Below are positions 41,546-61,727 of a stretch of DNA of 64,000 nucleotides, in pieces. How positions within the stretch are numbered: position 1 is the stretch's first letter; every line of letters starts with the position of its first letter. Location: NCBI GenBank assembly GCA_020160915.1, contig JAIUPK010000003.1, positions 248,001 to 312,000 on the forward strand, in the 5' to 3' direction. Source of the stretch: Actinomycetota bacterium (GTDB lineage Bacteria; Actinomycetota; Actinomycetes; Actinomycetales; Microbacteriaceae). The notes under the pieces were generated by a model. That model was not told the DNA's origin. It saw nothing but the letters and a program-made list of their open reading frames with translations, and ran no database searches. The translations under genes and the position numbers were made by a program.

Positions 41546-42151
41546 ATGACTGTCTCGACTGGATACGTGCACGAGACGGCGGATGTCGCATCAAGCGCGT
41601 CCATCGCCGCCGGCGCAAAGGTCTGGCACTACGCGCAGATCCGCGAGAACGCCCAGATCGGCGCGAACGTGATCGTGGGCCGAGGTGCTTATGTCGGCAC
41701 CGGCGTCGAGGTCGGCGACAACTGCAAGATCCAGAACTACGCACTCGTCTACGAGCCCGCGAAGCTGGGGCGCGGCGTCTTCATCGGCCCGGCGGTCGTG
41801 CTCACCAACGACCACTTCCCCCGAGCGATCAACGCCGATGGCACGCCCAAGTCGGCTGACGACTGGCACCCGGTGGGCGTCGACATCCGTGAGGGCGCAT
41901 CGATCGGGGCGAGCAGCACGTGCGTGGCTCCAGTGACGATCGGGCGGTGGGCACTGGTCGGTGCCGGCTCTGTCGTGATCAAGGACGTTCCCGACTTCGC
42001 GCTCGTGGTGGGCAGCCCCGCGCGCCGCGTGGGCTGGGTCGGCATGGCGGGTCACCCGCTCACAAAGGATTCCGAGCGCATGTGGGTCTGCCCGGTAACA
42101 GCAGCGCGCTACCAGCAGGTGGGCGACGACGAATTGATTGAGGTGCAGTAG
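41546..42151 (+). CDS. WbpD/WlbB-like UDP-sugar N-acetyltransferase
   Basis: A 201-residue left-handed beta-helix acetyltransferase. The hexapeptide-repeat body spans about 15-150 (IRENAQIGANVIVGRGAYVG ...), followed by a LTNDHFPRA loop typical of the WlbB/WbpD subgroup. It acetylates the 3-amino group of UDP-2-acetamido-3-amino-glucuronate with acetyl-CoA. The next two genes code for the aminotransferase and dehydrogenase that make its substrate, which supports the call. GAGGTG before the next ATG and direct TAG-ATG adjacency show an operon. Confidence 0.9.
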   Translation: MTVSTGYVHETADVASSASIAAGAKVWHYAQIRENAQIGANVIVGRGAYVGTGVEVGDNCKIQNYALVYEPAKLGRGVFIGPAVVLTNDHFPRAINADGTPKSADDWHPVGVDIREGASIGASSTCVAPVTIGRWALVGAGSVVIKDVPDFALVVGSPARRVGWVGMAGHPLTKDSERMWVCPVTAARYQQVGDDELIEVQ

Positions 42152-43228
42152 ATGATTCCAGCAGCCCGCCCGGAGATCGGTGACGAGGAGCGCGCGGCAG
42201 TCGATCGCGTCATGCGATCGGGCATGCTCGCCCAGGGCCCCGAGGTAGCCGCGTTCGAATCGGAGTTCTCCGCGATCGTGAACGGCATGCACTCGATCGC
42301 CGTCAACTCCGGCACGTCAGCCCTACACATGGCATTCCTCGCCGCGGGTGTCGGGGCCGGCGACGAAGTCATTGTGCCGTCGTTCAGCTTCGCTGCGACC
42401 GCGAACTCCGTCGCCCTGGCCGGGGCGACCCCGGTATTCGTCGACATCGAGCTCGATCACTTCAACGCCGCACCGGCCGCCATCGAGGCCGCGATCACCC
42501 CGCGCACCAAGGCGATCATGCCGGTGCACTTGTACGGGCATCCCGCTGACCTCGTCGCCATCAAGGCGATCGCCGACAAGCACGGTCTGCTGCTGTTCGA
42601 AGACGCGGCTCAGGCCCACGCGGCGTCGGTCAACGGCGTACCGGTTGGTGCCTGGGGCATCGCCGGGAGCTTCTCGTTCTACCCGACCAAGAACATGACC
42701 TCGGGCGAGGGCGGAATGATCACGACCCCGTCTGACGAGGTTGCACGCCTGGCGCGTGTTCTACGCAACCAGGGCATGGAGCGCCGGTACGAGAACGAGG
42801 TCGTCGGGTTCAACACCCGCATGACCGACATCCACGCGGCTATCGGCCGGGTGCAGCTCACCAAGCTCGCGGGCTGGACGGCCAAGCGCCAGGCGAACGC
42901 TGCGTTCCTGAACGCGCACATCGAGGGTGTTGTCACGCCGCCGACGGCTCCCGGGGCCGTACATGTCTTCCACCAGTACACGATCCGGGTCGTCGACCAT
43001 GACCGGGATGCGTTCGCCGAGCAGCTGAGCCAGCGCGGCGTCGCGAGCGGCGTCTACTACCCGACGCCGATCCACCGGCTGCCGTCGTTCCGGCTCGACC
43101 TCGACCTGCCCACTACGGAGATTGCGGCCACCCAGGTGCTGTCGCTGCCGATCTACCCCTCCCTGACCGACGGCGAACTGGAGACGATCGTCGAGGCGGT
43201 CAACGAGGTCGCCAAGGCTGGCTCCTGA
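42152..43228 (+). CDS. WbpE/WlbC-like DegT aminotransferase
   Basis: A 358-residue PLP-dependent sugar aminotransferase of the DegT/DnrJ/EryC1/StrS family. It transfers an amino group from glutamate to the 3-keto sugar. The internal aldimine Lys lies in FSFYPTKNMTSGEGG, and the AVNSGTSALHMAF phosphate-binding region is near residue 50. It follows the acetyltransferase stop without a gap and overlaps the dehydrogenase start as TGATG, so the three proteins are made together. It acts on UDP-2-acetamido-3-keto-glucuronate (inference from neighbours). Confidence 0.92.
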   Translation: MIPAARPEIGDEERAAVDRVMRSGMLAQGPEVAAFESEFSAIVNGMHSIAVNSGTSALHMAFLAAGVGAGDEVIVPSFSFAATANSVALAGATPVFVDIELDHFNAAPAAIEAAITPRTKAIMPVHLYGHPADLVAIKAIADKHGLLLFEDAAQAHAASVNGVPVGAWGIAGSFSFYPTKNMTSGEGGMITTPSDEVARLARVLRNQGMERRYENEVVGFNTRMTDIHAAIGRVQLTKLAGWTAKRQANAAFLNAHIEGVVTPPTAPGAVHVFHQYTIRVVDHDRDAFAEQLSQRGVASGVYYPTPIHRLPSFRLDLDLPTTEIAATQVLSLPIYPSLTDGELETIVEAVNEVAKAGS

Positions 43229-44202
43229 TGGTGTTGCGCGCCGGGCTCCTCGGTCTGGGGGTCATGGGCAGCAACCATGCTCGGGTGCTCTCCTCACTCG
43301 AGGGTGTCGAGTTCGTGGGCGTGTTCGACCCGTCGCCGACGGTGCCCGATCAGGTGTTCGAGCGCCCCGTCATCCGCGATCTTGATCAGTTCCTGGAACT
43401 CGGACTCGACTACGCCGTGGTGGCCGCACCCACGATCTATCACTTCGACATGGGCAGCCGGCTGGCCGAGGCCCGAGTGCATGCCCTCATCGAGAAGCCC
43501 GTCGCCTCGACGCTCGAGGAGGCGGTCGCCCTGCGGGATCTCTTCGCTGCGCGCGGCCTCATCGGGGGCGTGGGGCACATCGAGCGCTACAACCCCGCGC
43601 TGCAGGCGGCCCGCAAGCGCATCGAGTCGGGAATGATCGGCGAGGTCTACCAGATCGCCACCCGCCGCCAAGGACCGTTCCCCGGGCGCATCGCCGACGT
43701 CGGCGTCATCAAGGATCTCGCATCGCACGACATCGACCTGACGGCCTGGGTCGCCCAGCAGGAGTTCGTCTCGGTGAATGCCCGCACGGCACACCGCAGC
43801 GGGCGACCGCACGAGGACATGGTCGTGGCCATCGGCACCCTGTCAGGCGGAACCATCACCTCGCACGTGGTGAACTGGCTGACACCGTCGAAGGAAAGGG
43901 TGACCGTCATCACGGGCGAGAATGGTGTGCTCGTCGCCGACACACTCACCGCTGACCTCACCTACTACGAGAACGGGCGCATCCAGGTCGACTGGGATCC
44001 GGGAGAGTTCCGCGGCGTGTCCGAGGGCGACGTGACCCGCTTCGCGCTCGACCGCAAGGAGCCCATGCTCACCGAGCACGAGTGCTTCCGCGACTCGGTG
44101 CTTGCAGGGGAAGCGCGCGGCATCGTCACATTCGCCGAGGGCGCTCGTGTGGTCGAGATCGCCGAGAATCTGGTCGCTGACGGGTTGGATCGACGGCTGT
44201 AG
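43228..44202 (+). CDS. WbpB/WlbA-like Gfo/Idh/MocA dehydrogenase
   Basis: A 324-residue NAD(P)-dependent dehydrogenase. The N-terminal Rossmann motif is GLLGLGVMGSNHARVL, the EKP motif lies in HALIEKPVASTLEEA, and the catalytic His lies in DLASHDIDLTAW. In the WbpB/WlbA role it oxidises C3 of UDP-N-acetyl-glucuronate to the 3-keto form. Because it overlaps the aminotransferase gene by one base, a joint function is likely. Other Gfo/Idh substrates cannot be excluded on sequence alone. Confidence 0.85.
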   Translation: MVLRAGLLGLGVMGSNHARVLSSLEGVEFVGVFDPSPTVPDQVFERPVIRDLDQFLELGLDYAVVAAPTIYHFDMGSRLAEARVHALIEKPVASTLEEAVALRDLFAARGLIGGVGHIERYNPALQAARKRIESGMIGEVYQIATRRQGPFPGRIADVGVIKDLASHDIDLTAWVAQQEFVSVNARTAHRSGRPHEDMVVAIGTLSGGTITSHVVNWLTPSKERVTVITGENGVLVADTLTADLTYYENGRIQVDWDPGEFRGVSEGDVTRFALDRKEPMLTEHECFRDSVLAGEARGIVTFAEGARVVEIAENLVADGLDRRL

Positions 44203-44312: not shown

Positions 44313-44347
44313 CGTGGTCTGAGAGCGTCGGGGGATAGGTGCACGCC

Positions 44348-46097: not shown

Positions 46098-46937
46098 CTA
46101 GCGGTCGGCGGGAGGCCAGGGTTCGCGAGGGCTCCACCCGAGATCGCTGCTGATCGCCGTGATGTCGGCGCAACTGTAGCTGTCGACCTCGGGACCGATC
46201 ACGACGGCCTCGCGGGGCACCTGCGGCAGGGAATCCAGTAGATCCCGATTGCTGGTCGGGATGCCGCTGCCCACGTTGAGAACACGGAATCCCGCCGAGT
46301 CCGACTCCGCGGCTGACAGAATTGCTCGAGCCACGTCATCCACGTGCACGTAGTCGCGGACGAAGCCGTCAAGCCCGGTCAGGTGGGCAGGCGCCCCCGC
46401 GGATGCCGTCTGCAAGCGGGTCACGAGCGAGTCAGGCATCCCGGGGCCGTAGACATTGAACACCCGCAGAACATCGACCGCGACATCTCCAGCGGAGCTG
46501 GCGAGAACCTCCTCCGCCGTCAGCTTGGTCGTTGCATAGACACCCGTCGGGTCGGTCGAATCCTGCTCGGAGACTGGCCTGCGGCGACGATCCCCGTAGA
46601 CGGCAGCCGTGGAGATGAAGACGAGCCGCGCTACCTCGGCCGCCTGCGCGGCCGCGAGGATCGCGGCGGTGCCGCCGACGTTCACGCGTGCCGCGGTCGC
46701 CGGGTCGTTCTCGCATTCGCGCCCGACGATGGACGCCAAATGCACGATGGCCGCTGGCTTGATTGCGCTGATGGTCGCGAGCGTGGACTGTGGGTCGGTT
46801 ACGTCGAGACGCCTCTCGGGGTCGTCGCCCCGGGAGCCAGTCATAGCGAACATCGGTGTCCCGCTCGCACCGAGGCGCTGCAGCGCCCGGCCCAGCCTGC
46901 CACCGGAGCCGGTGACCAGGACCGGTCCCCGCGTCAT
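46098..46937 (-). CDS. NAD-dependent epimerase/dehydratase
   Basis: A 279-residue short SDR. The VTGSGGRLGRALQRL nucleotide motif, the ISTAAVYG catalytic region and YATTK (YxxxK) are present. It lacks residues that would fix a substrate; GalE-, RmlD- or WcaG-like activity on a nucleotide sugar is likely. It is encoded after the CapD-like gene with an ATGA overlap, so it may act on the keto product of that enzyme. Length is about 30 residues shorter than most epimerases. Confidence 0.82.
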   Translation of the reverse strand: MTRGPVLVTGSGGRLGRALQRLGASGTPMFAMTGSRGDDPERRLDVTDPQSTLATISAIKPAAIVHLASIVGRECENDPATAARVNVGGTAAILAAAQAAEVARLVFISTAAVYGDRRRRPVSEQDSTDPTGVYATTKLTAEEVLASSAGDVAVDVLRVFNVYGPGMPDSLVTRLQTASAGAPAHLTGLDGFVRDYVHVDDVARAILSAAESDSAGFRVLNVGSGIPTSNRDLLDSLPQVPREAVVIGPEVDSYSCADITAISSDLGWSPREPWPPADR

Positions 46938-48304
46938 TTGATCTCGAATCCCAGCTCTCGCAGCGCCTTCACCGCGTCGTCGTGAGATATCGAATAGGCG
47001 AGGGTGCGCTGCAGGAGGGACTCGATCGTCGCGATGAAGGCGGAGTGATCGAACTGCTTCTCGCCGCGAACGACGAAGATCTTCTGATTGGTCGTGCGAT
47101 CGACCCGATCCGGCTCGTAGCTGAGCTCTTCGAACATCTTCTCTCCGGGCCGCAGACCGGTGATCTCGATCGTCAGGGTCGGATCCACTGCGCGGATCAG
47201 ACTCTGGGCGAGGTCGAGGATGCGCACGGGTTCACCCATGTCGAGTACGAAGATCTCGCTGTCCTTGCCGAGGGCGGCCGACTGGATGATGAGCTGGCTG
47301 GCCTCATCGATGGTCATGAAGAACCGGGTCACTTCGGGATGGGTCACCGTGAGGGGCTCGCGCTTGGCGATCTGCGATCGGAAGATCTGCATGACGCTGC
47401 CGTTGCTCTCGATCACATTGCCGAACCGCACCGCGGTGAACCTCGTCGGTGACGCGGGGTCGGCAAGCGACTCCATGAGCATCTCGCCGATGCGCTTGGT
47501 GGAACCCATGACATTGACGGGATTGACGGCCTTGTCCGTGGACACGTAGACGAAGTTGCTCACCCCGTGCTCGATCGCCAGGCGCATCACATTGAGACTG
47601 CCCCACACATTGTTGTTGATCGCTTCGAGCGCGTTGCTCTGCATGAGGGGCACATGCTTGTAGGCGGCGGCGTGGAAGACGATGTCGGGGGCGAACTCGG
47701 AGAAGATCGCCTTCATGTGGGCCTGATTCTTGATGTCGGCGATGCGCAGCGCGACGTTCTCGCGGCCCGTCAGGGTCTGGCCGAGGTAGAACATGCCGTT
47801 CTCCCACCAGTCAACGCACAGCACCTCGGCGGCACCGGCGGCGACGATGTGCCTGGTGAGCCGAGACCCGATGGATCCAGCGCTTCCCGTGACGAGCACG
47901 CGCTTGCCCGCGAGGAACTTCTGCGAGACAACAACGTTGTGCTTGACCGGTTCGCGACCGACGAGATCCAGAACGTCGACGTCGGTGAGGTCGTTGATGT
48001 TGACCGTTTCCTTGGACAGGATGTCGTACGTTCGGGGCACGATCGCGATGTCCACGGCCGAGGAGTAGATCGAATTGATGAACTCTCGCACCTTCGCCGA
48101 GTTCGCCGTCGGAATGGCGAAGTACACCAGATCGATGGCGTGGGCCGCGACGACCTCGTTCACGTCGCCCAACGTGCCCAGCACCTCGTCGCTGGTCGAC
48201 CGATCGTCGAGGAAGCCGACAACGTCGCCGCCACGAGATCGGATGTCCTCGGCCAGCGAGATCCCTGCGGCGCCGTGACCGACTATCAGAATTCGCTCGC
48301 TCAA
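46934..48304 (-). CDS. CapD-like nucleotide-sugar dehydratase without TM helices
   Basis: A 456-residue polysaccharide biosynthesis protein. The N-terminal ~125 residues form a CoA_binding_3-like Rossmann domain. The C-terminal SDR domain (about 130-450) has VTGSAGSIGS, the FVYVSTDKAVNPVNVMGSTKR catalytic region and KHVPLMQSNALEAINNNVWG, as in UDP-GlcNAc 4,6-dehydratases (CapD, WbpM, PglF). The membrane helices of full-length family members are missing, so the enzyme should be soluble. It overlaps the genes on both sides by 4 nt. GC is lower than in the flanks. Confidence 0.88.
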   Translation of the reverse strand: MSERILIVGHGAAGISLAEDIRSRGGDVVGFLDDRSTSDEVLGTLGDVNEVVAAHAIDLVYFAIPTANSAKVREFINSIYSSAVDIAIVPRTYDILSKETVNINDLTDVDVLDLVGREPVKHNVVVSQKFLAGKRVLVTGSAGSIGSRLTRHIVAAGAAEVLCVDWWENGMFYLGQTLTGRENVALRIADIKNQAHMKAIFSEFAPDIVFHAAAYKHVPLMQSNALEAINNNVWGSLNVMRLAIEHGVSNFVYVSTDKAVNPVNVMGSTKRIGEMLMESLADPASPTRFTAVRFGNVIESNGSVMQIFRSQIAKREPLTVTHPEVTRFFMTIDEASQLIIQSAALGKDSEIFVLDMGEPVRILDLAQSLIRAVDPTLTIEITGLRPGEKMFEELSYEPDRVDRTTNQKIFVVRGEKQFDHSAFIATIESLLQRTLAYSISHDDAVKALRELGFEIK

Positions 48305-49593: not shown

Positions 49594-51372
49594 TCAGGTC
49601 AGTCCGGCAAGCGATGCCTGATGCGCGAAATCAGGGAATGTGGTCACGAGCTCGTCGAATGTGCCACAACCGGCCACTTCACCCTCCTGCATGAAGAAGA
49701 TGCGATCGGCGTGCCGAATCGTTGCCAACCGATGAGCGACGATGATCTTCGTCACGCCTCCGCCGATTGCGTCGAGGCCCGCCATGACGAGCGCCTCAGT
49801 ATTCGTGTCAAGTGCGCTCGTGGCCTCGTCGAGCACCAGGACGAGCGGGTCGCTGTAGAGAGCACGGGCGATTCCGAGGCGCTGGCGCTGACCCCCGGAC
49901 AGCGAGAGGCCGCGCTCTCCGACCCGGGCCTGGATGCCACCTTCGCGCGCAGAGACGAGCTCCCAGAGCTGCGCCTGCTCGAGAGCAGAGCGCACCCGGT
50001 CGGCATCGTAGCCATCGCCCCAGGTGAGGGCGACGTTCTGTGCGATCGTCGCGTCGAATAGCGCGACATCCTGCGGAACGTACCCGACACGGGATCGCCA
50101 GTCACTTCGCACCTCGGTCAACGAGACCCCATCGACCGAGATAGTTCCCTCGGTCGGCTCCAGCAGGCTGATCAGGAGGTCTACCATGGTCGACTTACCT
50201 GAACCGGATGCCCCCACGAACGCAACGGTGGAGCCGAATGGGATATCTAGAGACACGCCCTTCAGCGCAGCAGGGGCATCCGCGGAGTACTGGAACACGA
50301 CGTCATCCAGCACGATGCTCTTCGGGTTCGGCGGTACCGGCCCCGACGGTCGAGAGTTGACTTCAGCGCTGGACCGCTCGGTGTCCTCCAGTTCAGCCAG
50401 GACGCGCCGAGGATACTCGGAGATCGAGACCATGAGGGCGAGCACCGACTGAACGCGGATCACCGACGGCGCCATCCGGAATCCCGCGAGCGCGAAGAGC
50501 GCGACGGCTGCGATCGCCTGTTCGATACCGCCGATCAGGAAGCCCACACCACCGATGACGACGAACCCGACGATGAGACCCGACTCGAGTGCATACCGGG
50601 GCAGCTGTCCGAGGAAGTACATGTTGCCGCGCGCCCGGGCGCTGAGAGTGCGGGTCTCTGCAACGACATCGGCGACCTCGCTCTCCTTGTTGCGCAGCGA
50701 CACCTCTTTCATCGCGCCCACGATCTCGAGGACGAGGCGTGAGGCGCCGATCGTGTTGTGCACGTGCACCTCGCCGGCGGTACGCACGGGCCGGGCGATG
50801 CCGAAGAACAGAACCGACCCGAGAAGAAGCAGGTAGGCGAGCGTAGTGATAGCGAGGATCGGTTGCACGATCGCCAGGGTTCCGATGATCACGACGAGGC
50901 TCACGAATTCGCCGAGCAGCGTGGCGCCCGGCAGCACGAAGCTGTTGACCGTGGCGTCGACGCCAGTGTCGGCGAAACGCATGATCTCGGCGGAGTTCTT
51001 CTTCAGCCGGTCACGCCAGGGTGCGGTGATGTATGCCCGGAACAGGCGATCGCCGATCGCGACCTCGTATCGAGGGATGCGCCGAGTCGCCCACCACGTC
51101 ACCAGGACCGCCAGTGCCCCCTTGGCCACCATCAGCACGCAGATCACCAGGATGACCCACACGACCCCCACCGAGTCGAGGGTGCCGACGAGCGGGAGCG
51201 TCACCGCGGTACCCGACGCGACCGGGCCGATGACGGCGGCCAGAAGACCGAGTGCTCCAGCGTCGAAGATCGCGAGGGATGCGAGCAGCCAGGAGTAGAG
51301 GTTGAGGAACCGTGCCCCTCCGAGCGGGAAGACCGCGACGATGTCCCGGTACAGGGCCAGTACAGACCTCAC
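49594..51372 (-). CDS. ABC exporter, fused TM and ATPase (MsbA/PglK-like)
   Basis: A 592-residue half-transporter. Six TM helices lie in about residues 20-320, and the nucleotide-binding domain follows (about 355-590). It has Walker A in VAFVGASGSGKSTM, the signature LSLSGGQRQRLGIARAL, Walker B in VLVLDEATSALD and a later H-loop in IIVAHRLATI. The type resembles exporters of lipid-linked oligosaccharides or lipids. GTG 51372 is preferred because GGAGG lies 5 nt upstream; ATG 51384 is possible. The locus also encodes a Wzx-like flippase, so two export routes coexist. Confidence 0.92.
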   Translation of the reverse strand: MRSVLALYRDIVAVFPLGGARFLNLYSWLLASLAIFDAGALGLLAAVIGPVASGTAVTLPLVGTLDSVGVVWVILVICVLMVAKGALAVLVTWWATRRIPRYEVAIGDRLFRAYITAPWRDRLKKNSAEIMRFADTGVDATVNSFVLPGATLLGEFVSLVVIIGTLAIVQPILAITTLAYLLLLGSVLFFGIARPVRTAGEVHVHNTIGASRLVLEIVGAMKEVSLRNKESEVADVVAETRTLSARARGNMYFLGQLPRYALESGLIVGFVVIGGVGFLIGGIEQAIAAVALFALAGFRMAPSVIRVQSVLALMVSISEYPRRVLAELEDTERSSAEVNSRPSGPVPPNPKSIVLDDVVFQYSADAPAALKGVSLDIPFGSTVAFVGASGSGKSTMVDLLISLLEPTEGTISVDGVSLTEVRSDWRSRVGYVPQDVALFDATIAQNVALTWGDGYDADRVRSALEQAQLWELVSAREGGIQARVGERGLSLSGGQRQRLGIARALYSDPLVLVLDEATSALDTNTEALVMAGLDAIGGGVTKIIVAHRLATIRHADRIFFMQEGEVAGCGTFDELVTTFPDFAHQASLAGLT

Positions 51373-51440
51373 TTGAGCCTCCATTCGGCGAACCACGTGA
51401 GTCTACCCGGGCGGACCGGTGTGCCAGCCGAGCGTGGCCA

Positions 51441-51453: not shown

Positions 51454-51486
51454 ATGTGTCGACAAGCCCCGGGACGATCGTGGTGA
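51454..51486 (+). CDS. Candidate leaderless 10-codon leader ORF
   Basis: ATG 51454 starts the 10-codon frame MCRQAPGRSW, whose TGA stop (51484-51486) overlaps GTG 51483 of the following glycosyltransferase as GTGA. The -10 TAGACT sits 7 nt upstream. Such an arrangement fits translational coupling. Translation is not proven. Confidence 0.35.
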   Translation: MCRQAPGRSW

Positions 51487-52640
51487 GCCAGCCAATGGAG
51501 CCCAAACGGATCCTCTGCGTCTCCTTCTCCCCCATCTACGCCGACTCCCGAGTACTGCGTCAGCTCGAGGTGCTGCGCCAGCGCGGCGAGGTGACCACGG
51601 TGGGATATGGGCCTGCTCCGGAGGGAGTGGCTCGTCACATTGAGGTGCCTGAGAAGGCGTCATCCCTGCCGGAGACTCCACTTGGTGTCGCGCGGCTGGC
51701 CCTTCACCTGCACAGCGCAGTCGAGCTGACCGCGCCGGGCGAGAAGGCCGTGCGCAAGGCAGTTGTCGAGTCGGGCCCCTACGACCTGGTCGTCGCCAAC
51801 GATGCCCGTGCACTGCCGCTGGCTTTCGCCGCAGCGGGGGACGTACCCGTGCTCGCCGACATGCACGAATGGGCGCCCGAGGAGCGTGCGACCGTGCTCA
51901 TCTGGCGTCTGCTCGTGGGGCCGTACATGGAACACCTCTGCTCGAAGTACCTGCCCCGTACCACGGCAGTGACCAGCGTGAGTTCCGGACTGGCAGGCCT
52001 CTACACCGAGCGATACGGCGTAGCCACCGAGATCGTGCGCAACGCAGCCGACTTCCAGAACCTCGCCCCGTCGCCGGTCGATCCGGCCGTGATCAAGCTC
52101 GTGCACAGCGGCACCGCCGATGCCGAGCGCAACATCATGGAACTGATCGAAGCCGTCGATCGGCTGGGCGAGCGGTTCAGCCTCGACCTCTACCTGCTCG
52201 AGGTTCCCGGCGGGCATCTGGATGTCATCCGCAAGAAGGCCGCCGTGACGCCGCGAGTGACGGTGCACCCGCCCGTGCCGCCGGAGACCCTGCCTCGCGT
52301 TCTGAACCAGTACGACCTGGGCGTCTTCCTCTACCCTCTGCGCACCTTGAGCCACCTGTATCACCTGCCGAACAAGTTCTTCGACTTCGTGCAGGCACGG
52401 CTCGGACTGGTGTTCTCGCCTGCCCCCGAGATCGATGCCCACCTCGCGCAGTACGGGCTCGGGCTCATCACCGCGGACACGAGTGCTGACGCGCTGGTCG
52501 ACGCCCTCAAGGACATCACCGTCGACGACGTCGTCGGTTTCAAGCAGGCGGCGGACCGCGCGGCTCGGGCACTCTCCAGCGAGCCGGACCGGGCGACCCA
52601 GGATGCCCTGGTCGCGCGACTGCTTGCTGGGCGTTCATGA
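51483..52640 (+). CDS. GT-B-type glycosyltransferase
   Basis: A 385-residue soluble glycosyltransferase-like protein. The N-terminal Rossmann part has ILCVSFSPIYADSRVLRQLE and DMHEWAPEE. The C-terminal part has IKLVHSGTADAERN and LPNKFFDFVQARLGL. It is a clear paralogue of the gene at 55200-56345 (shared SPVDP, LNQYDLG and LPNKFF segments). GTG 51483 overlaps the leader ORF stop; an alternative start is GTG 51456 or ATG 51495. It overlaps the next glycosyltransferase as ATGA. Donor and acceptor are unknown. Confidence 0.82.
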   Translation: MSQPMEPKRILCVSFSPIYADSRVLRQLEVLRQRGEVTTVGYGPAPEGVARHIEVPEKASSLPETPLGVARLALHLHSAVELTAPGEKAVRKAVVESGPYDLVVANDARALPLAFAAAGDVPVLADMHEWAPEERATVLIWRLLVGPYMEHLCSKYLPRTTAVTSVSSGLAGLYTERYGVATEIVRNAADFQNLAPSPVDPAVIKLVHSGTADAERNIMELIEAVDRLGERFSLDLYLLEVPGGHLDVIRKKAAVTPRVTVHPPVPPETLPRVLNQYDLGVFLYPLRTLSHLYHLPNKFFDFVQARLGLVFSPAPEIDAHLAQYGLGLITADTSADALVDALKDITVDDVVGFKQAADRAARALSSEPDRATQDALVARLLAGRS

Positions 52641-53794
52641 GGGTTGTGATCGCCAGCCGGATCTTCGCCCCCGAAGTTTCGGCGGCATCCGGCATTCTTC
52701 GAATTTGGGCGGAGGAGTTTCGTGATCGCGGCTTCGACGTCACGATTCTGACGGCGAAGCCGCCACGCGGCGCGGTGATCGATGATCCGCCGGGCATCGA
52801 TGTGCGCCGCGCACCGGTGAAGCGCGACAAGCAGCAGTACGTGCGCGGGTACCTCAGCTACATGAGCTTCGACATCCCGCTGGCATTTCGCATGCTGTTC
52901 TCGCGACGAGCCGATCTCTACATCGTCGAACCACCACCGACAACCGTGGCCGTGGTTCGCGTCATTGCGGCAATTCGTCGCACCCCCTACGTCGTTCGCG
53001 CGGCCGATTACTGGACCGAAGCGGCCGAACTGGTGACGAGTTCGCCCCTGATCCTGGGCACGCTCCGGCGGCTCGAGGCGTGGGGTCTGGGCGGCGCGAA
53101 GATTCTGTTCGCCGCCCACCAACCGCTCATCGACCGCTTCCGCACGCTGGGGATCACCACTCGTGCGGTGCCCATCGGATTCGGCGCCGATACCAAGGAC
53201 TTCCGGTACGAGGGCCAGGCGCCCCCCAAGCATCCGGTGTTCGTCTACGCAGGAACCCACTCGGAGTGGCACGGCGCCGGCATCTTCGTCGAGGCGATGC
53301 CCCAGGTGCTCGAGCAGTACCCCGGCGCACGACTGCTCTACTACGGCAACGGTGAGGAACGAGACGGCATGCGCGACCGCGCGCGCGAGCTGGGCCTCGA
53401 CGATTCGGTCGAATTCCACGGCCCTATTTCACCTGCGACCCTCTCGCCGATCCTGTCATCGGCCACGTCGACGGTGGCCAGCCTCACCCCCGTTCCCGCG
53501 AACGAGTACGCGCTCGCGACCAAGGTGTACTCCTCCCTTGCCGCCGGATGCCCCGTGATCTTCGCTGGCGTCGGCCCCACCATGGAGTTCCTCAACGACG
53601 CGGGCCACCCTCGCGCGGGTGTTGCAGTGCCGTACGACGTGACGGCGACCGCATCCGCCATGCTCGCCGCGGCGGCTGCCCCGCTGGCCCCGGATGCCCG
53701 TGCCGAACTCGCCGATTGGTCGGCCCGGGAGTACTCGCTGCGCGCGATAGCCCAGCAGGTCGTCGAGGAGAGCCTCGGCTTGATCGGCCGGTAG
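52637..53794 (+). CDS. GT4-like glycosyltransferase
   Basis: A 385-residue GT-B enzyme of the GT4 type. It begins VVIASRIFAPEVSAASG, with GTGGGG-like glycine context missing but EVSAASG present. The donor half has VFVYAGTHSEWHGAGIFVEAM and ALATKVYSSLAAGCPVIFA, matching the family pattern. Its end contains TAG of TAGAAT, the -10 of the dehydrogenase gene. It belongs to the operon started by the leader ORF. Sugar specificity cannot be read. Confidence 0.85.
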   Translation: MRVVIASRIFAPEVSAASGILRIWAEEFRDRGFDVTILTAKPPRGAVIDDPPGIDVRRAPVKRDKQQYVRGYLSYMSFDIPLAFRMLFSRRADLYIVEPPPTTVAVVRVIAAIRRTPYVVRAADYWTEAAELVTSSPLILGTLRRLEAWGLGGAKILFAAHQPLIDRFRTLGITTRAVPIGFGADTKDFRYEGQAPPKHPVFVYAGTHSEWHGAGIFVEAMPQVLEQYPGARLLYYGNGEERDGMRDRARELGLDDSVEFHGPISPATLSPILSSATSTVASLTPVPANEYALATKVYSSLAAGCPVIFAGVGPTMEFLNDAGHPRAGVAVPYDVTATASAMLAAAAAPLAPDARAELADWSAREYSLRAIAQQVVEESLGLIGR

Positions 53795-53828: not shown

Positions 53829-55127
53829 GTGAAGATCGCCGTCATCGCCCTTGGAAAGATCGGGCTCCCGCTCGCCGTGCAGTTCGCCAGCAAGGGGCAC
53901 GACGTGATCGGCGTCGATGTGTCCCAGCGCACAGTTGACCTCATCAACGAGGGCATCGAGCCGTTCCCGGGCGAGGCACACCTGCAGGAGATGCTCTCCG
54001 AGCTCGTTCCGGCGGGCAAGCTGCGCGCCACCACGCAGTACTCCGAGGCGGTGCCCGGTGCTGACGCCGTAGTGCTCGTGGTTCCGCTGTTCGTCGACGA
54101 GGAGACCGCCGAGCCCGACTTCGGGTGGATGGATGGCGCGACCCGCTCCCTCGGCGAGGTCCTCACCCCGGGCACCCTCGTCTCGTACGAGACGACGCTG
54201 CCGGTCGGCACCACTCGCACGCGCTGGAAGCCCATGCTCGAAGAGGCATCGGGGCTCACCGAGGGCGTGGACTTCGATCTCGTCTTCTCCCCCGAACGTG
54301 TTCTCACCGGCCGCGTCTTCGCGGATCTGCGCAAGTACCCGAAGCTCGTCGGCGGGCTGTCGGAGCGGGGAGCCGCGAAGGCTGTCGACTTCTACCGCGC
54401 AGTGCTCGACTTCGATGAGCGACCCGACCTAGTTCGCCCGAACGGCGTGTGGGACTTGGGCAGCGCCGAAGCCGCCGAGCTCGCGAAGCTCGCCGAGACG
54501 ACCTACCGCGACGTCAACATCGGACTCGCCAACCAGTTCGCCCGCTACGCGGCGACCGCGGGCATCGACGTCTACCAGGTGATCGAAGCGTCCAACTCCC
54601 AGCCGTACTCCCACATCCACCAGCCGGGCATCGCCGTGGGCGGTCACTGCATTCCTGTGTACCCGCGGCTCTACCTGTGGACCGACCCCGAGGCGACGGT
54701 CGTCTCCGCTGCCCGAGCCGCCAATGCCGGGATGCCCGACTACACGATCGGGCTGCTTGAGGGTGCCCACGGCGACCTCACCGGCGCGAAGGTTGCCGTG
54801 CTGGGCGCCGCCTACCGCGGGGGCGTGAAGGAGACCGCGTTCTCGGGCGTCTTCGGCGCTGTCGAGGCGCTCAAGCAGCGGGGCGCGACGCCCGTCGTTC
54901 AGGACCCGCTCTACTCCGACGAGGAGCTGACCTCCCTCGGGTTCACGCCGTATCACCTCGGCGAGCAGGTCGATGCCGTCGTGATCCAGGCTGACCACGC
55001 CGAGTACCGCACACTGAAGCCCGCGGACCTGCCCGGCATCACCGCGTTCATCGACGGGCGACGGGTGTCGTCCGCCGAGCAATGGCCCGGCATCGCCTAC
55101 CGCGTCATCGGCAAGGCCATCGCCTGA
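53829..55127 (+). CDS. UDP-N-acetylhexosamine dehydrogenase (WbpA/WecC type)
   Basis: A 432-residue UDP-sugar 6-dehydrogenase. The N-terminal NAD motif is IAVIALGKIGLPLA, with Lys in place of the usual Tyr in GYxGLP. The active-site Cys is in VGGHCIPVYP. The central SSTVLPGT-like motif reads SYETTLPVGTT, and the C-terminal half has a second Rossmann fold. It oxidises UDP-GlcNAc or UDP-ManNAc to the uronate, and so can start the UDP-2,3-diacetamido-glucuronate route (41.5-44.2 kb). GTG 53829 is set by its SD. Confidence 0.9.
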   Translation: MKIAVIALGKIGLPLAVQFASKGHDVIGVDVSQRTVDLINEGIEPFPGEAHLQEMLSELVPAGKLRATTQYSEAVPGADAVVLVVPLFVDEETAEPDFGWMDGATRSLGEVLTPGTLVSYETTLPVGTTRTRWKPMLEEASGLTEGVDFDLVFSPERVLTGRVFADLRKYPKLVGGLSERGAAKAVDFYRAVLDFDERPDLVRPNGVWDLGSAEAAELAKLAETTYRDVNIGLANQFARYAATAGIDVYQVIEASNSQPYSHIHQPGIAVGGHCIPVYPRLYLWTDPEATVVSAARAANAGMPDYTIGLLEGAHGDLTGAKVAVLGAAYRGGVKETAFSGVFGAVEALKQRGATPVVQDPLYSDEELTSLGFTPYHLGEQVDAVVIQADHAEYRTLKPADLPGITAFIDGRRVSSAEQWPGIAYRVIGKAIA

Positions 55128-55199: not shown

Positions 55200-56345
55200 T
55201 CAGGCGCCGACCTCGGCGAGGAAACGGGGGCCTTCACCTCGGGTTGAGAAGTCCGATGCGGCGCGGTCTGCTGCCTGCTTCATAGCAGTGATCTGCTCAG
55301 GCGTGAGGGCATTGAGTGCGGCCGCGAGGTCGGCGCCGGTCCAGCCGTCGACGACCAACCCGAAACCGTGCTCCCGCACGAAGCCGACGATCTCGGGGCT
55401 CTCGCCGATGACGACGCCCAGTCGACCCTGGATCGCCTCGAAGAACTTGTTGGGCAGCGCGTAGATGTTGTTGGCGAACCGGGGCGGGAAGAAGATCAGC
55501 TCGAGATCGTACTGGTTGAGGGCGCTCGCCACCTCGGTGACCCCGACGGGCTCGCGGAACGTCGCGCGGCCGGCGGCGATGGCGGGATGCGCGCGCAGCG
55601 GCGCCAGGGAGCGCTCGTCCCCGAGCACCATGAGCACCAGGCTGAACCTCGGCTCGAGGAGCAGTGCCGCGTCGAGCATGATGTCGATGCCCCGCTCGAC
55701 CGCCGCGTAGCCGTGGTGCACGAGCACGATGTTCTCGGGATCCACCGGCGACGGCGTCAGCTCCTGGTAGGGCGCGATGTTGCGGATGACTCCGGGTCGC
55801 GCGATGCCGTACTGGTCCCGGTAGAGATCGGCGATGCCCTCGGCCACCGTGAGGTGCTTGGTGAACACGGGCGACGTGATGAAGGTGAGCAGCCAGTCGT
55901 CGTAGCGTGCGATGAGGAGCTTGTAGACGAGGCTCGTGCCGTTGCCCGAGTACACCTCGTGGAGGTCGAGGACGACCGGTCCCTTGGCGAGGGCCGGGAC
56001 CGCCTTCACGACCCAGGGTAGGAGGTGATGGTCATTGACGATGATGAGGTCGTAGGTGTTGCCCGCGAGCTCCGCGGTAGGCATGTACTTCTCGACGACA
56101 CCGCGGAACCGCGCACGCGGGGGGAGGAACGCGTTGACGATCAGCTTCAGCCGGCTCGAGGGGTGCCCGATGCGGAATCCCCGGCCCGTGGCATCCGGGT
56201 GCTCCGGACCCTGGCTGAGGATGTCGACGCGGTAACCCGCGGACTCCAGCCAGCGGATCTGGTTCGACACCCGGGCATCGCTGCCGACGGGCGAGTAGCA
56301 CATGACGAGGGCCCTCTTGGAGGGTTTGCTGGGCTGGCCTGACAC
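55200..56345 (-). CDS. GT-B-type glycosyltransferase (paralogue)
   Basis: A 381-residue glycosyltransferase, paralogue of the product at 51483-52640. Both share TPSPVDP, LVHHGYAAVERG/LVHSGTADAERN, LNQYDLE/LNQYDLG, LPNKFFE/LPNKFFD and a KQAADRAA ending. The N-terminus (ALVMCYSPVGSDARVSNQIRWL) matches the Rossmann start. I use GTG 56345 because TAGGAT ends 6 nt before it; GTG 56348 is the next choice. It is convergent with the dehydrogenase gene and divergent from the amidotransferase gene. Its own neighbours suggest the same glycan. Confidence 0.82.
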   Translation of the reverse strand: MSGQPSKPSKRALVMCYSPVGSDARVSNQIRWLESAGYRVDILSQGPEHPDATGRGFRIGHPSSRLKLIVNAFLPPRARFRGVVEKYMPTAELAGNTYDLIIVNDHHLLPWVVKAVPALAKGPVVLDLHEVYSGNGTSLVYKLLIARYDDWLLTFITSPVFTKHLTVAEGIADLYRDQYGIARPGVIRNIAPYQELTPSPVDPENIVLVHHGYAAVERGIDIMLDAALLLEPRFSLVLMVLGDERSLAPLRAHPAIAAGRATFREPVGVTEVASALNQYDLELIFFPPRFANNIYALPNKFFEAIQGRLGVVIGESPEIVGFVREHGFGLVVDGWTGADLAAALNALTPEQITAMKQAADRAASDFSTRGEGPRFLAEVGA

Positions 56346-56351
56346 CACGCC

Positions 56352-56502: not shown

Positions 56503-58338
56503 GTGTGCGGAATCTTTGGCTTCATCGGCCCGGATGACCTCGACACCGCGTCAGCCAAGACTCTGGTGAAGCACGCACAGCAGCGAGGCCGTGACTCGAG
56601 CGGAATGGTCATCCGCGAGGCGGATGCCTACCACGCCTACCGCGCCGATTACCCGATCGGCTGGCTGCTCAAGCGCATCCCGCCGCTGGGCAACCTGTTC
56701 TTCGGCCACAGCCGGCTTGTCACCAACGGCACCGGCGACAACCAGCCCGTCTCCCGCGAGCAGGTCATCGTGCTGCACAACGGCATCGTGGTCAATCACG
56801 AGGCGATCTGGCCGATCCTCGGCAAGACCCCGACCCTGGAGATCGACACCGAGGTCATCCCCGCGATCATCGCCTCGCATCTCGCCGAGGGCGGTTCCGT
56901 CGAGACGGCGGCCGCGCGGGTGCTCAGCCTCACCGAGGGCGTGGTCGCCTGCGCCGCACTGATCCCGCGACTGGGCAAGCTCCTGCTGTTCTCGAACAAC
57001 GGCAGCCTCTACGTCGGTGACAAGAGCGGGGGGCTCGTGTTCTCCTCCGAGCGCTACCCGCTGCTGCAGATCGACGCGGAGAACATCCGCCAGGTGCGGG
57101 GCGGCGAGGGTGTCGTCGTGGATGTCCCGCCGCAGGAGGAGCAGATCGAGATCACCGAGTGGGCCAACCGCTCCGTCGACCTCGTGCCAGGGCTGGGCTA
57201 CTCGACGGAGGAGGAGCGGCTGCTGGTCTACCCGAAGCCCGACTTCCGTCGGTGCACCCGGTGCGTGCTGCCGGAGACCATGCCCTTCATCGCGTTCGAT
57301 GAGAACGGCGTCTGCAACTACTGCCACAACTACAAGCCGAGGAACCACCCGCGCCCCAAGGAGGAGCTGTTCGAGCTCATCGAGCCCTTCCGGCGGGCGA
57401 GCGGTGACGAGGTCCTGGTCCCGTTCTCCGGCGGGCGTGACAGCTCGTACGGACTGCACCTCATCATCCACGAGCTCAAGCTGCGCCCCGTCACGTACAC
57501 CTACGACTGGGGCATGGTCACCGACCTGGGCCGCAGGAACGTGAGCCGCATGTCCTCCAAGCTCGGCGTGGAGAACATCATCGTTGCCGCCGACATCACG
57601 AAGAAGCGCGACTACATCCGACGCAACCTCAACGCGTGGATCAAGTCCCCGCACCTGGGCATGCTCAGCGTGCTCACCGCGGGCGACAAGCACTTCTTCC
57701 GTCACATCGAGACCCTCAAGCGCCAGACCGGCGTGACGCTGAACCTCTGGGGCATCAACCCGCTCGAGGTCACGCACTTCAAGGCGGGATTCCTCGGCGT
57801 GCCGCCGGACTTCGCCGAGGAGCGGGTCTACAGCCATGGGGCGATGAAGCAGTTGCGCTACCAGTCGCTGCGCCTGAAGGCCATGCTCCAGAGCCCGGGC
57901 TACTTCAACCGGTCCGTTCCCGACACCCTGCTGGGCGAGTACTACCGCAGCTTCACGACCAAGAGCGACTACTTCCACATCTTCGACTACTGGCGCTGGG
58001 ACGAGAAGCTCATCGAGGACACGCTCGACGCCGAGTACGACTGGGAGCGCGCACCCGACACGCAGACCACGTGGCGGATCGGCGACGGCACCGCGGCGTT
58101 CTACAACTACGCCTACTACACGATCGCCGGTTTCACGGAGCACGATACGTTCCGCAGCAACCAGGTGCGCGAGGGTGACATCACCCGCGAGGAGGCCCTG
58201 CGCCTCGTCGAGGAGGAGAACACCCCGCGCTACCCCAACCTCAAGTGGTATCTGGATGTGGTGGGCGTGGACTTCACCGCCGCGATCACGGCGATCAACA
58301 AGGCGCCGCGGCTCTACAAGGAACTGGACCGGGACTGA
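56503..58338 (+). CDS. Class II glutaminase fused to a WbpG/PseA-like sugar amidotransferase
   Basis: A 611-residue fusion. Residues 1-~215 form an Ntn-type class II glutamine amidotransferase domain. Cys2 (after GTG 56503, removed by processing) is the nucleophile in CGIFGFIG; QQRGRDSSG, GHSRLVTNGTGDNQPV and VLHNGIVVNHE complete the glutaminase pocket. A zinc motif follows (C251, C254, C271, C274). Then an ATP-PPase domain with PP-loop VPFSGGRDSS (about 306-315) continues to the C-terminus, as in N-acetyl-sugar amidotransferases WbpG and PseA. It should amidate a uronic acid or related sugar with ammonia from glutamine. SD GGAGA lies 7 nt upstream. Confidence 0.9.
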   Translation: MCGIFGFIGPDDLDTASAKTLVKHAQQRGRDSSGMVIREADAYHAYRADYPIGWLLKRIPPLGNLFFGHSRLVTNGTGDNQPVSREQVIVLHNGIVVNHEAIWPILGKTPTLEIDTEVIPAIIASHLAEGGSVETAAARVLSLTEGVVACAALIPRLGKLLLFSNNGSLYVGDKSGGLVFSSERYPLLQIDAENIRQVRGGEGVVVDVPPQEEQIEITEWANRSVDLVPGLGYSTEEERLLVYPKPDFRRCTRCVLPETMPFIAFDENGVCNYCHNYKPRNHPRPKEELFELIEPFRRASGDEVLVPFSGGRDSSYGLHLIIHELKLRPVTYTYDWGMVTDLGRRNVSRMSSKLGVENIIVAADITKKRDYIRRNLNAWIKSPHLGMLSVLTAGDKHFFRHIETLKRQTGVTLNLWGINPLEVTHFKAGFLGVPPDFAEERVYSHGAMKQLRYQSLRLKAMLQSPGYFNRSVPDTLLGEYYRSFTTKSDYFHIFDYWRWDEKLIEDTLDAEYDWERAPDTQTTWRIGDGTAAFYNYAYYTIAGFTEHDTFRSNQVREGDITREEALRLVEEENTPRYPNLKWYLDVVGVDFTAAITAINKAPRLYKELDRD

Positions 58339-58357
58339 AGGAACTAGACCGGGACTG
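58318..58357. repeat. 20-bp tandem duplication at a gene end
   Basis: The 20 bp at 58318-58337 recur at 58338-58357 with one change (G to A at 58346). The first copy ends the amidotransferase gene. The second contains the CTA that is the stop codon (TAG) of the opposite-strand DUF2142 gene. Confidence 0.85.
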
Positions 58358-59867
58358 ACGACGCGCTGACGCTGCGACGCAACTGAGGCCACAGCACCAC
58401 GAGCAGCGCCGCGTAAGCGAGAGCACCGATCACCCACACGGCAGTCGGCCCCACGGGGAGGTTCGGCCACCACCATTCGGCGCCCGCGTCGAGGCTCACG
58501 CCCTGCTGGTCGGCACCCGTGACATAGCGCCGGATGTTGACCTGAAGTGACACCAGGTTGGCCAGCGTGAGAGCGCCCAGTACCGCGAACGTCTGAATCC
58601 GGGTGAACCGCATCTCACGTCCCGGAGGCATGGTCGCGAGGAGCAGCGAGAGCAACAGGATCAACGGCAGCAGGTAGCGCGGCTGCAACGCCTCGCCGAC
58701 CTTCATTCCGCCGACGGTGAGCACATACACGGGCAGCACCACGAGCACGAGCAGCACCCCGGCCACGCTGATGGCCTTGCGCCAATCGAGCCGACCCAGC
58801 CCCGCGAACGCAACGACGATGAACGCCGCCGCAGCCGCCCACGGGACGATCGCGGGCAGACCGGTGTCGAACCAGCCGAGGGCCCAGGTTCCCCACACCC
58901 CGGTCCAGAGGAACGGGAGCATGAGCAGGTTGTACGCGGCCAGCGCGAATCCCGACATGGGAGCACCGGGCGACACTGTGCCGTCACCGCTGCCGGCCCC
59001 GGGGCTCACGGCGGTACCGCCACTGAATCCGATCGCGCCGACGCCCGACTGCCCGGCGTTGACGAAGAACAGGACAGCGATGACGATTCCCGCCAGCGGA
59101 AGCGCCGCGCGAAGCGCCCACTCCCGGGTGCGAGCCGAGGCGATGATGGATGCCGTGACGCTGGCTCCCACCACGTAGACGCCGGCGTCCCCTCGTGCGC
59201 CCGCGGCCATGACCACTCCGACCAGGTAGAGGGCGCCGAGAGCCCACCGACGGCGCCCCTCGGTCTCGAACCAGCCGAGCACGGCAAGGAATGCCGTGCC
59301 GACGCCCGTGATGGCCCATCCGCTCGGATTGTTCGAAGGGATGAGGAAGATGCCGAGCGGGATCATGGCGACCAACCATCCCCACAGCAGAGTGCGGCGC
59401 CGGGTGAAGGGCGGGAGCACGAACAGGGCGGTCGTGAGGGCCACGAACAGGGCTGCGTTGACGAGACGCATCGTCAGCGCGCTGACCTGGATGTCCGACC
59501 CCGCGAAGAGATGCATCGTCGCGTAGTAGACGGGCGGGTACTCACCCGCGAAGTTGCCGCGGTCGGTCTCGTAGCGACCTTCGGCGTCCAGCGCCGCGGT
59601 CTGGCATTCGGCGCTGACGTCCTTCTTGCCTGCGTAGCAGATGATGTCGCGGAAGCCGGCATCCATGCTGCGGGTGCCGGGCTCGGAGCCAGGCTGGCAC
59701 TCGGGGCTGCCGCCGACCGCGCACCATGTGCTGATGAGGTGGTAGTCGTCGTCCGGGCCGGCGCCGACCGGCGAGGCGAAGGCCCAGGCGGAGAGCGCGA
59801 GGAAGGCTACAACGGGCGCGAGATGAATCCAGCGCAGCCGTCGAATCAGGCTGCGTACACCGTTCAC
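58344..59867 (-). CDS. DUF2142 membrane protein (copy 1)
   Basis: A 507-residue DUF2142 protein with about 11 TM helices and an external loop after TM1 containing SPVGAGPDDDYHLISTWCA, the family signature. Four cysteines are in the loop. DUF2142 proteins are suspected GT-C-like membrane glycosyltransferases acting in polysaccharide or teichoic-acid assembly. GTG 59867 overlaps the copy 2 stop as GTGA. The stop codon lies in the duplicated 20-bp unit. Confidence 0.85.
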   Translation of the reverse strand: MNGVRSLIRRLRWIHLAPVVAFLALSAWAFASPVGAGPDDDYHLISTWCAVGGSPECQPGSEPGTRSMDAGFRDIICYAGKKDVSAECQTAALDAEGRYETDRGNFAGEYPPVYYATMHLFAGSDIQVSALTMRLVNAALFVALTTALFVLPPFTRRRTLLWGWLVAMIPLGIFLIPSNNPSGWAITGVGTAFLAVLGWFETEGRRRWALGALYLVGVVMAAGARGDAGVYVVGASVTASIIASARTREWALRAALPLAGIVIAVLFFVNAGQSGVGAIGFSGGTAVSPGAGSGDGTVSPGAPMSGFALAAYNLLMLPFLWTGVWGTWALGWFDTGLPAIVPWAAAAAFIVVAFAGLGRLDWRKAISVAGVLLVLVVLPVYVLTVGGMKVGEALQPRYLLPLILLLSLLLATMPPGREMRFTRIQTFAVLGALTLANLVSLQVNIRRYVTGADQQGVSLDAGAEWWWPNLPVGPTAVWVIGALAYAALLVVLWPQLRRSVSASSVPV

Positions 59868-61390: not shown

Positions 61391-61727
61391 CCGAATCCTT
61401 GGACGACTTCTCGATGTCGAGAGCGAGTCGCTGAACGACCTTGCGGAGCTCATCGCGCGTGCGCGCGAGCTCGAGACTGATCTGCATGAGCAGCAGGAGT
61501 ATGACGAAGAACGCCCCCACGAACAGCAGGTTGATCGGCTGCTCGATGCCGAAGAAGTCGCTGATCGTGTCGAGCAGCGCCGGCCACGCGGAGAGCACGA
61601 TGCCGGCAACGGAGGCGACGAGCCACAGCACCGCGTACTTCTCAGGCAGCACGTAGGAACGCAGCAGAAGGATCACGGCGACGAGGAGTACCACGGCCAT
61701 GATGATCGCGAGCACCTGGGGCGTCAT
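61383..61727 (-). CDS. DUF2304 membrane protein
   Basis: A 114-residue protein with three TM helices (about 4-22, 33-52 and 66-87) and a charged helical C-terminus (ELARTRDELRKVVQRLAL) that may form a coiled coil. DUF2304 proteins typically follow a GT2 enzyme of the polyprenyl-phosphate type and probably help it at the membrane. The start overlaps the GT2 stop as ATGA. Confidence 0.9.
   Translation of the reverse strand: MTPQVLAIIMAVVLLVAVILLLRSYVLPEKYAVLWLVASVAGIVLSAWPALLDTISDFFGIEQPINLLFVGAFFVILLLLMQISLELARTRDELRKVVQRLALDIEKSSKDSDD

What the first reader, a model, noticed from the sequence alone, without database searches (positions are those of the whole stretch)
56503..58338. Self-contained sugar amidotransferase: class II glutaminase fused to a WbpG/PseA ATP-PPase
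Seen: Cys2 CGIFGFIG with the RGRDSSG and HNGIVVNHE pocket motifs, then a CxxC-x16-CxxC zinc motif and PP-loop PFSGGRDSS on one chain. Known: WbpG in Pseudomonas takes ammonia from HisH2/HisF2-like partners (class I glutaminase), and PseA homologues usually lack a glutaminase. Inference: this fusion replaces HisH/HisF with an asparagine-synthetase-like glutaminase and channels ammonia internally to amidate a glycan uronate. The locus also contains the enzymes that make such a uronate.
Basis: partly seen in the sequence, partly recalled or inferred. Interest (0 to 1): 0.75.

Follow-up and report, generated by a model that had tools for sequence, protein, structure and literature searches.

The report
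Self-contained sugar amidine synthase
One bacterial protein joins a glutamine-splitting domain to a sugar-amidating domain, so it can probably put a positively charged amidine group on a cell-surface sugar, a job that other bacteria do with three separate proteins; relatives of it occur in many bacteria under unrelated labels.

The parts
56503..58338 (+). fusion gene: class II glutaminase + NASAT-like PP-loop amidotransferase, 611 aa
56491..56495 (+). likely ribosome-binding site GGAGA, seven bases before the GTG start
   Evidence: read in the sequence
56503..57126 (+). GlmS/PurF-like Ntn glutaminase domain, about residues 1-208, Cys2 nucleophile
57241..58335 (+). NASAT-like PP-loop domain, residues 247-611
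57253..57324 (+). tetracysteine zinc motif C251/C254/C271/C274
   Evidence: 85 of 85 sequences; zinc reported for LpNASAT (PMC10607449)
57421..57447 (+). PP-loop PFSGGRDSS, residues 307-315
   Evidence: SGGRDS in 85 of 85
53829..55127 (+). nucleotide-sugar 6-dehydrogenase (WbpA-type role inferred)
   Evidence: TIGR03026 293 bits, cut-off 189.8; 4r16 UDP-ManNAcA dehydrogenase
41546..42151 (+). WbpD/WlbB-type 3-N-acetyltransferase
   Evidence: 3mqg 131 bits, best PDB match (that 3mqg is WlbB is recalled)
42152..43228 (+). DegT aminotransferase, WbpE-like role inferred (3- or 4-amino not settled)
   Evidence: WbpE 230 bits, but six other distinct enzymes in between score higher
43228..44202 (+). 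Gfo/Idh dehydrogenase, WbpB-like role inferred
   Evidence: NF040723 183 bits, cut-off 450; not matched by the Gfo profile of the fusion loci
46934..48304 (-). WlaL (PglF)-like UDP-GlcNAc 4,6-dehydratase
   Evidence: 5bju 238.6 bits
46098..46937 (-). short SDR reductase/epimerase next to the dehydratase
   Evidence: below all cut-offs
49594..51396 (-). MsbA/PglK-like ABC exporter, candidate flippase
   Evidence: below cut-offs
51456..52640 (+). glycosyltransferase (GT4-like)
   Evidence: PF13439 25.9 bits, below gathering 28.5
52637..53794 (+). glycosyltransferase (GT4 type)
55200..56348 (-). glycosyltransferase, divergent neighbour of the fusion

Best explanation
A self-contained, glutamine-dependent N-acetyl sugar amidotransferase. 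The GlmS/PurF-like domain hydrolyses glutamine at Cys2. The PP-loop domain uses ATP, probably giving AMP and PPi, to activate the carbonyl of a sugar N-acetyl group. Ammonia passed inside the protein replaces that oxygen and gives an acetamidino group. The substrate is most likely a 2,3-diacetamido-2,3-dideoxy-uronic acid made by WbpA/B/E/D (and I), as nucleotide sugar or on the lipid carrier, and a companion glycosyltransferase uses or extends it. Shown here: two domains with intact sites, conservation across the family, no HisH/HisF partner in most loci, linkage to the uronate pathway. Inferred: amidine chemistry, substrate, internal ammonia channel.
For: Both sites are conserved. The model has both domain folds with pTM 0.88. 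One clade (0.934; 0.929, aLRT 95.5), sister to the NASAT subtype found in fusion loci (1.0, aLRT 100), of which 18 of 25 lie within 1.5 kb of HisH/HisF. Glutaminase in 84 of 86 distinct fusion-clade ORFs and 0 of 71 distinct other NASAT-like ORFs. HisH/HisF within 1.5 kb: fusion 3 of 86, NASAT 46 of 70 (49 of 71 in the recount). HisF2 over cut-off in 14 of 16 fusion genomes with an ordinary NASAT and 0 of 24 without. WbpD-type gene within 30 kb on the same contig in 32 of 35 genomes against 34 of 369 genomes having one at all in a proteobacterial draw. E. coli cluster with only the WbpA/B/D/E/I pathway, polymerase, transporter-like protein, two GTs and the fusion. Loss of a WbpG homologue removes a 3-acetamidino group in M. 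maripaludis (PMC2952790, passages, cited there as unpublished).
Against: No activity data for any fusion. It scores below the NASAT cut-off wherever seen (98-155 of 203.2 bits). 16 of 40 genomes already have a NASAT, so the fusion may do something else there. 24 of 70 NASATs have no HisH/HisF within 1.5 kb, so that contrast is not absolute. WbpD-type genes are common among actinobacterial relatives (35 of 60), so linkage in the window alone is weak. In the window no 2-epimerase, PglC, or gt4 profile match was found, and its Gfo protein is not matched by the Gfo profile of the fusion loci; the B/D/E-type genes lie 12 kb away. A viral homologue (L106) lacks the glutaminase.
Confidence: 0.75

Rival explanations
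1. The fusion amidinates the usual initiating sugar, di-N-acetylbacillosamine, not the uronate.
For: PglC-type and DegT genes occur together in 42 of 55 fusion loci with at least 7.5 kb on both sides; a frequent order is fusion-gt4-PglC-PglD-DegT.
Against: The E. coli cluster has no PglC/PglD/PglE set between galF and gnd and keeps fusion plus gt4. The ten fusion loci nearest to the window in sequence (L024-L033, some short) show no PglC, nor does the window; Glaciibacter L059, closer to them than most, does have it.
Confidence: 0.1
2. It forms a uronamide at the carboxyl group, like AsnB-type sugar amidotransferases.
For: Glutaminase plus PP-loop is the layout of asparagine synthetase; uronates are present; uronamides occur in such glycans (PMC3210612, passages).
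Against: The PP-loop domain is NASAT-like with the zinc motif; AsnB-type genes are also present in 16 of 55 fusion loci, which suggests another job.
Confidence: 0.08
3. It works on L-FucNAc (WbuX-like, giving L-FucNAm) or on several HexNAc sugars.
For: WbuX precedent (PMC10607449); the viral PP-loop-only homologue L106 lies with a 2-epimerase and a PseB/FnlA-like dehydratase.
Against: FnlA over cut-off in 0 of 40 fusion genomes, with one strong match below it (567 of 730 bits).
Confidence: 0.05

Closest known systems
WbpG / WbuX / LpNASAT (TIGR03573, N-acetyl sugar amidotransferases; 8WEX)
   Same: PP-loop domain fold, tetracysteine zinc motif, SGGxDS
   Different: standalone and often beside HisH/HisF; the fusion has its own glutaminase and scores below the TIGR03573 cut-off
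GlmS and PurF glutaminase domains
   Different: no isomerase or PRTase domain; 58 of 418 bits (GlmS) and 42.7 of 350 (PurF) in NCBIfam
Asparagine synthetase B and AsnB-type sugar amidotransferases
   Same: glutaminase followed by a PP-loop ATPase on one chain
   Different: both domains come from other branches; 39.7 of 267 bits; no zinc motif in AsnB (recalled)
   Same: a NASAT fused to part of its ammonia-supply machinery
   Different: the fused part is HisF (PF00977), not a class II glutaminase

Membership tests
NASAT, TIGR03573 | score over the curated cut-off 203.2 bits | tested here: not met
   123.8 bits; 98-155 bits for the fusions of 40 genomes
NASAT, TIGR03573 | tetracysteine CxxC...[GN]xCxxC and PP-loop SGGxDS | tested here: met
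   motif as given in PMC10607449
NASAT, TIGR03573 | fold of 8WEX | tested here: met
NASAT, TIGR03573 | standalone chain served by HisH/HisF | tested here: not met
   own glutaminase; HisH/HisF within 1.5 kb of 3 of 86 fusions; no HisH/HisF profile match in the window and no HisF2 over cut-off in the own genome
NASAT, TIGR03573 | forms acetamidino sugars | not testable with these tools
   needs an enzyme assay or glycan structure
Class II (Ntn) glutamine amidotransferase domain | Pfam GATase_6/GATase_7 over gathering score | tested here: met
   28.3 against 27 and 29.4 against 25
Class II (Ntn) glutamine amidotransferase domain | N-terminal Cys and glutamine-pocket residues | tested here: met
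   Cys2 84 of 85; R71, N93, G94, D115 85 of 85; the roles of the residues are recalled from GlmS
Asparagine synthetase (TIGR01536) | score over the curated cut-off | tested here: not met
   39.7 of 267.1 bits
GlmS (TIGR01135) | score over the curated cut-off | tested here: not met
   58 of 418.05 bits
QueC (PF06508), a label used for one member | Pfam QueC match | tested here: not met
   not among the families listed at E up to 1
Channelled amidotransferase | continuous ammonia tunnel between the two sites | not testable with these tools

The most novel reading that the evidence does not exclude
The fusion and its glycosyltransferase are a portable one-enzyme replacement for the HisH-HisF-WbpG trio across many phyla. 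Where both kinds occur in one cluster, each amidinates a different N-acetyl or residue, giving zwitterionic glycans with more than one cationic amidine per repeat.
Probability: 0.3. Interest if true: 0.7.

Novelty: new variant of a known kind. Interest (0 to 1): 0.55.

Why it matters
Acetamidino groups put positive charge on otherwise acidic surface glycans (chemistry recalled). In what I read no in vitro activity is reported for a NASAT: the LpNASAT structure paper has none in the parts read. A single chain that needs only glutamine and ATP would make the reaction assayable with one protein. Members are labelled hypothetical protein, glucosamine 6-phosphate synthetase or 7-cyano-7-deazaguanine synthase in records, so acetamidino glycans may be under-predicted from genomes.

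Tried and rejected
L-FucNAc as the general substrate, suggested by the viral locus L106, was tested with FnlA in 40 genomes and dropped (0 over cut-off). Bacillosamine looked strongest from gene order until the E. coli cluster without that pathway. An iqtree run timed out; FastTree and a fast LG+G4 tree were used instead. The tree of glutaminase domains failed on duplicate names; only its profile scores are used. There the class labels come from a motif pattern or from my ORF clusters; 25 reference chains were given (14 GlmS, 10 AsnB, 1 unlabelled), 21 matched, and the unlabelled one (L009) scored highest at 65.6 bits. Literature: ten searches showed no description of this fusion in their listings or in the passages I opened; most subscription journals are not held. 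A 2026 QueC-family paper (PMC13329287, one passage) mentions WbpG-type proteins of 300-400 aa, not this fusion. The paper on the E. [quoted passage not shown] PMC6120980 (passages) proposes a 605-aa 'AsnB' for the acetamidino group of a T. forsythia glycan; whether that protein belongs to this family could not be checked.

Rows dropped before counts: re-fetched copies and also L027 and L028 were left out of the 86 fusions, and the window itself was not in that set; the recount by sequence gives 86 distinct fusion ORFs with L027 and L028 in, again 3 near HisH/HisF.

Full report

Distribution. In a collection of one genome per species, 278 stretches matched the patterns, 256 encode a relative and the best 80 were kept; all 80 cover at least query residues 10-591. 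Record titles name Actinomycetota, Pseudomonadota, Bacteroidota, Planctomycetota, Verrucomicrobiaceae, Rhodothermales, Leptospiraceae, Bryobacterales, Campylobacterales, Bdellovibrio and others; many are MAGs, so single placements may be binning errors. Plasmid records add three full-length members, two at 66.8% and one at 41.4% identity; viral contigs add two full-length at 52% and one PP-loop-only. In the window's own order the family is rare: TIGR03573 matches at E up to 1e-20 in 4 of 396 genomes, three of which (G000, G315, G368) hold a fusion-clade ORF. In a draw of 60 relatives that includes the window's own genome, three carry the full fusion: G000, G014 and G019.

Family. In 85 aligned fusion sequences, the window's included, Cys2 is present in 84 and the other key residues in 85. 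In a FastTree of 156 PP-loop domains the 89 fusion-clade members form one clade (support 0.934, stem 1.67). In a 78-sequence set the clade is again single (0.929; aLRT 95.5) and is sister to the NASAT subtype found in fusion loci (1.0; aLRT 100); 18 of 25 such NASATs lie within 1.5 kb of HisH/HisF. I call them WbpG-like by gene order; the WbpG sequence itself was not in the set, and the fusion stem is long. Of 86 distinct fusion-clade ORFs 84 carry the glutaminase; the two without are L106 (viral) and L038 (a stop in the frame). None of 71 distinct other NASAT-like ORFs carries it (with re-fetched copies 90 of 92 and 0 of 85). The fusion's glutaminase profile scores 14 GlmS chains at 43-65 bits and 6 of 10 AsnB chains at 13-18 bits, the other 4 not at all. 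This fits one fusion event of a GlmS/PurF-like glutaminase with a WbpG-like enzyme.

Ammonia supply. HisH or HisF lies within 1.5 kb of 46 of 70 NASAT ORFs and 3 of 86 fusions (49 of 71 and 3 of 86); about a third of the NASATs have none so near, so the partner rule is not strict. In 40 of the 80 fusion genomes, an ordinary NASAT is over cut-off in 16 and HisF2 (NF038364) in 14; the 14 are all among the 16, and the 24 without NASAT have none (Fisher p 5e-9, not corrected for relatedness). Of the two NASAT genomes without HisF2, one misses the cut-off by one bit (309 of 310). At locus level the same holds less cleanly: of 55 loci 14 have both, 3 NASAT only, 4 HisF only, 34 neither. The window's genome has no other NASAT and no HisF2 over cut-off. 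A HisF-NASAT fusion in another genome (L154) shows the same coupling by a different route. So the fusion does not seem to need HisH/HisF, but it is not simply their replacement: in 16 of 40 genomes both kinds occur, in 14 of these on the same contig within 13 kb.

Substrate. Among 55 fusion loci with at least 7.5 kb on both sides, gt4 is in 45 (directly downstream in 32), PglC 43, DegT 45, PglD-type 42, WbpM 26, ugd 19, Gfo 19, HisF 18, HisH 17, NASAT 17, AsnB 16, WecB 7 (profiles and thresholds are mine). With the window's WbpD-like protein as query, 32 of 35 fusion genomes (34 of the 80 and the window's own) have a match on the same contig within 30 kb of the fusion (median 11.7 kb); two have it on another contig and one has none. 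The base rate is 34 of 369 in a draw from the class of G078, a Rhodocyclaceae genome, which includes three fusion genomes, but 35 of 60 among the window's relatives. Without the nine genomes that I class as actinobacterial from their titles, the linkage is 23 of 26; these 26 span several phyla, so the comparison is rough. The window protein's best PDB match is 3mqg, WlbB. The clearest case is in E. coli: 2 of 5,426 genomes carry the gene, with the same annotated cluster. Between galF and gnd lie a Gfo/Idh protein (501 bits to 3q2i, WlbA as recalled), a TviB-type 6-dehydrogenase, an acetyltransferase (297 bits to 3mqg), an aminotransferase (592 bits to WbpE), a 'lipopolysaccharide biosynthesis protein' (Wzx by position), an O-antigen polymerase, a GT4, a 2-epimerase (380 bits to UDP-GlcNAc3NAcA 2-epimerase 8sxv), the fusion (64% identical to the window's) and a second GT4 of the gt4 family, plus two frameshifted IS genes. 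No other sugar pathway, NASAT or AsnB is in that interval; HisH/HisF nearby are those of the histidine operon. WbpA/B/E/D/I gives UDP-ManNAc3NAcA (PMC10622841, passages). By elimination the fusion acts on that sugar.

Mechanism. The LpNASAT paper reports zinc and a PP-loop and proposes ATP-to-AMP chemistry, without an assay in what I read (PMC10607449, parts 1-2 of 4). Loss of the WbpG homologue MMP1081 removes the 3-acetamidino group in M. maripaludis (PMC2952790, passages, cited there as unpublished). From this I infer glutamine hydrolysis at Cys2, adenylation of the N-acetyl oxygen, attack by ammonia and release of AMP. What is shown here is only the presence and conservation of both sites.

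Limits. No tunnel was examined. Counts are of sequences, not independent events. The window is not the best case: its fusion stands between a divergent and a convergent neighbour, 1.4 kb from the 6-dehydrogenase and 12 kb from the B/D/E-type genes; a WlaL-like dehydratase is nearby, no 2-epimerase, PglC, HisH, HisF or gt4 profile match was found in the window, and its Gfo protein is not matched by the Gfo profile of the fusion loci.

Noticed in passing
   Followed up: partly
L153:4749-7727 (-): 993-aa ORF with AMP-binding, a QueC/NASAT-like PP-loop and a carrier domain: an NRPS-like module with a built-in amidating-type domain.
   Followed up: partly
L106:4992-6101 (+), IMG/VR contig: Viral contig encodes the PP-loop half alone (370 aa, 66-67% identical) beside a UDP-GlcNAc 2-epimerase and a PseB/FnlA-like gene; the neighbouring gene is no glutaminase, and the profile found none in the 9.2 kb held.
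   Followed up: partly
L104 and L105, IMG/VR contigs: Full-length fusion at 52% identity on viral contigs; the neighbouring ORFs, read by eye in L104, do not look like sugar-pathway genes.
   Followed up: no
L031:3760-4917 (-) and a few other NASATs: Some NASATs have lost zinc cysteines: 4-5 of 55 sequences have T, S or A at three of the four positions.
   Followed up: no
58344-61609 (-): Two neighbouring membrane proteins of one ORF cluster; the first is DUF2142. The cluster recurs in 9 of the 86 loci compared, all near the window's relatives.
   Followed up: no
44339-46081 (+): Protein with three cell wall binding 2 (CWB2) repeats inside the glycan locus.
   Followed up: no
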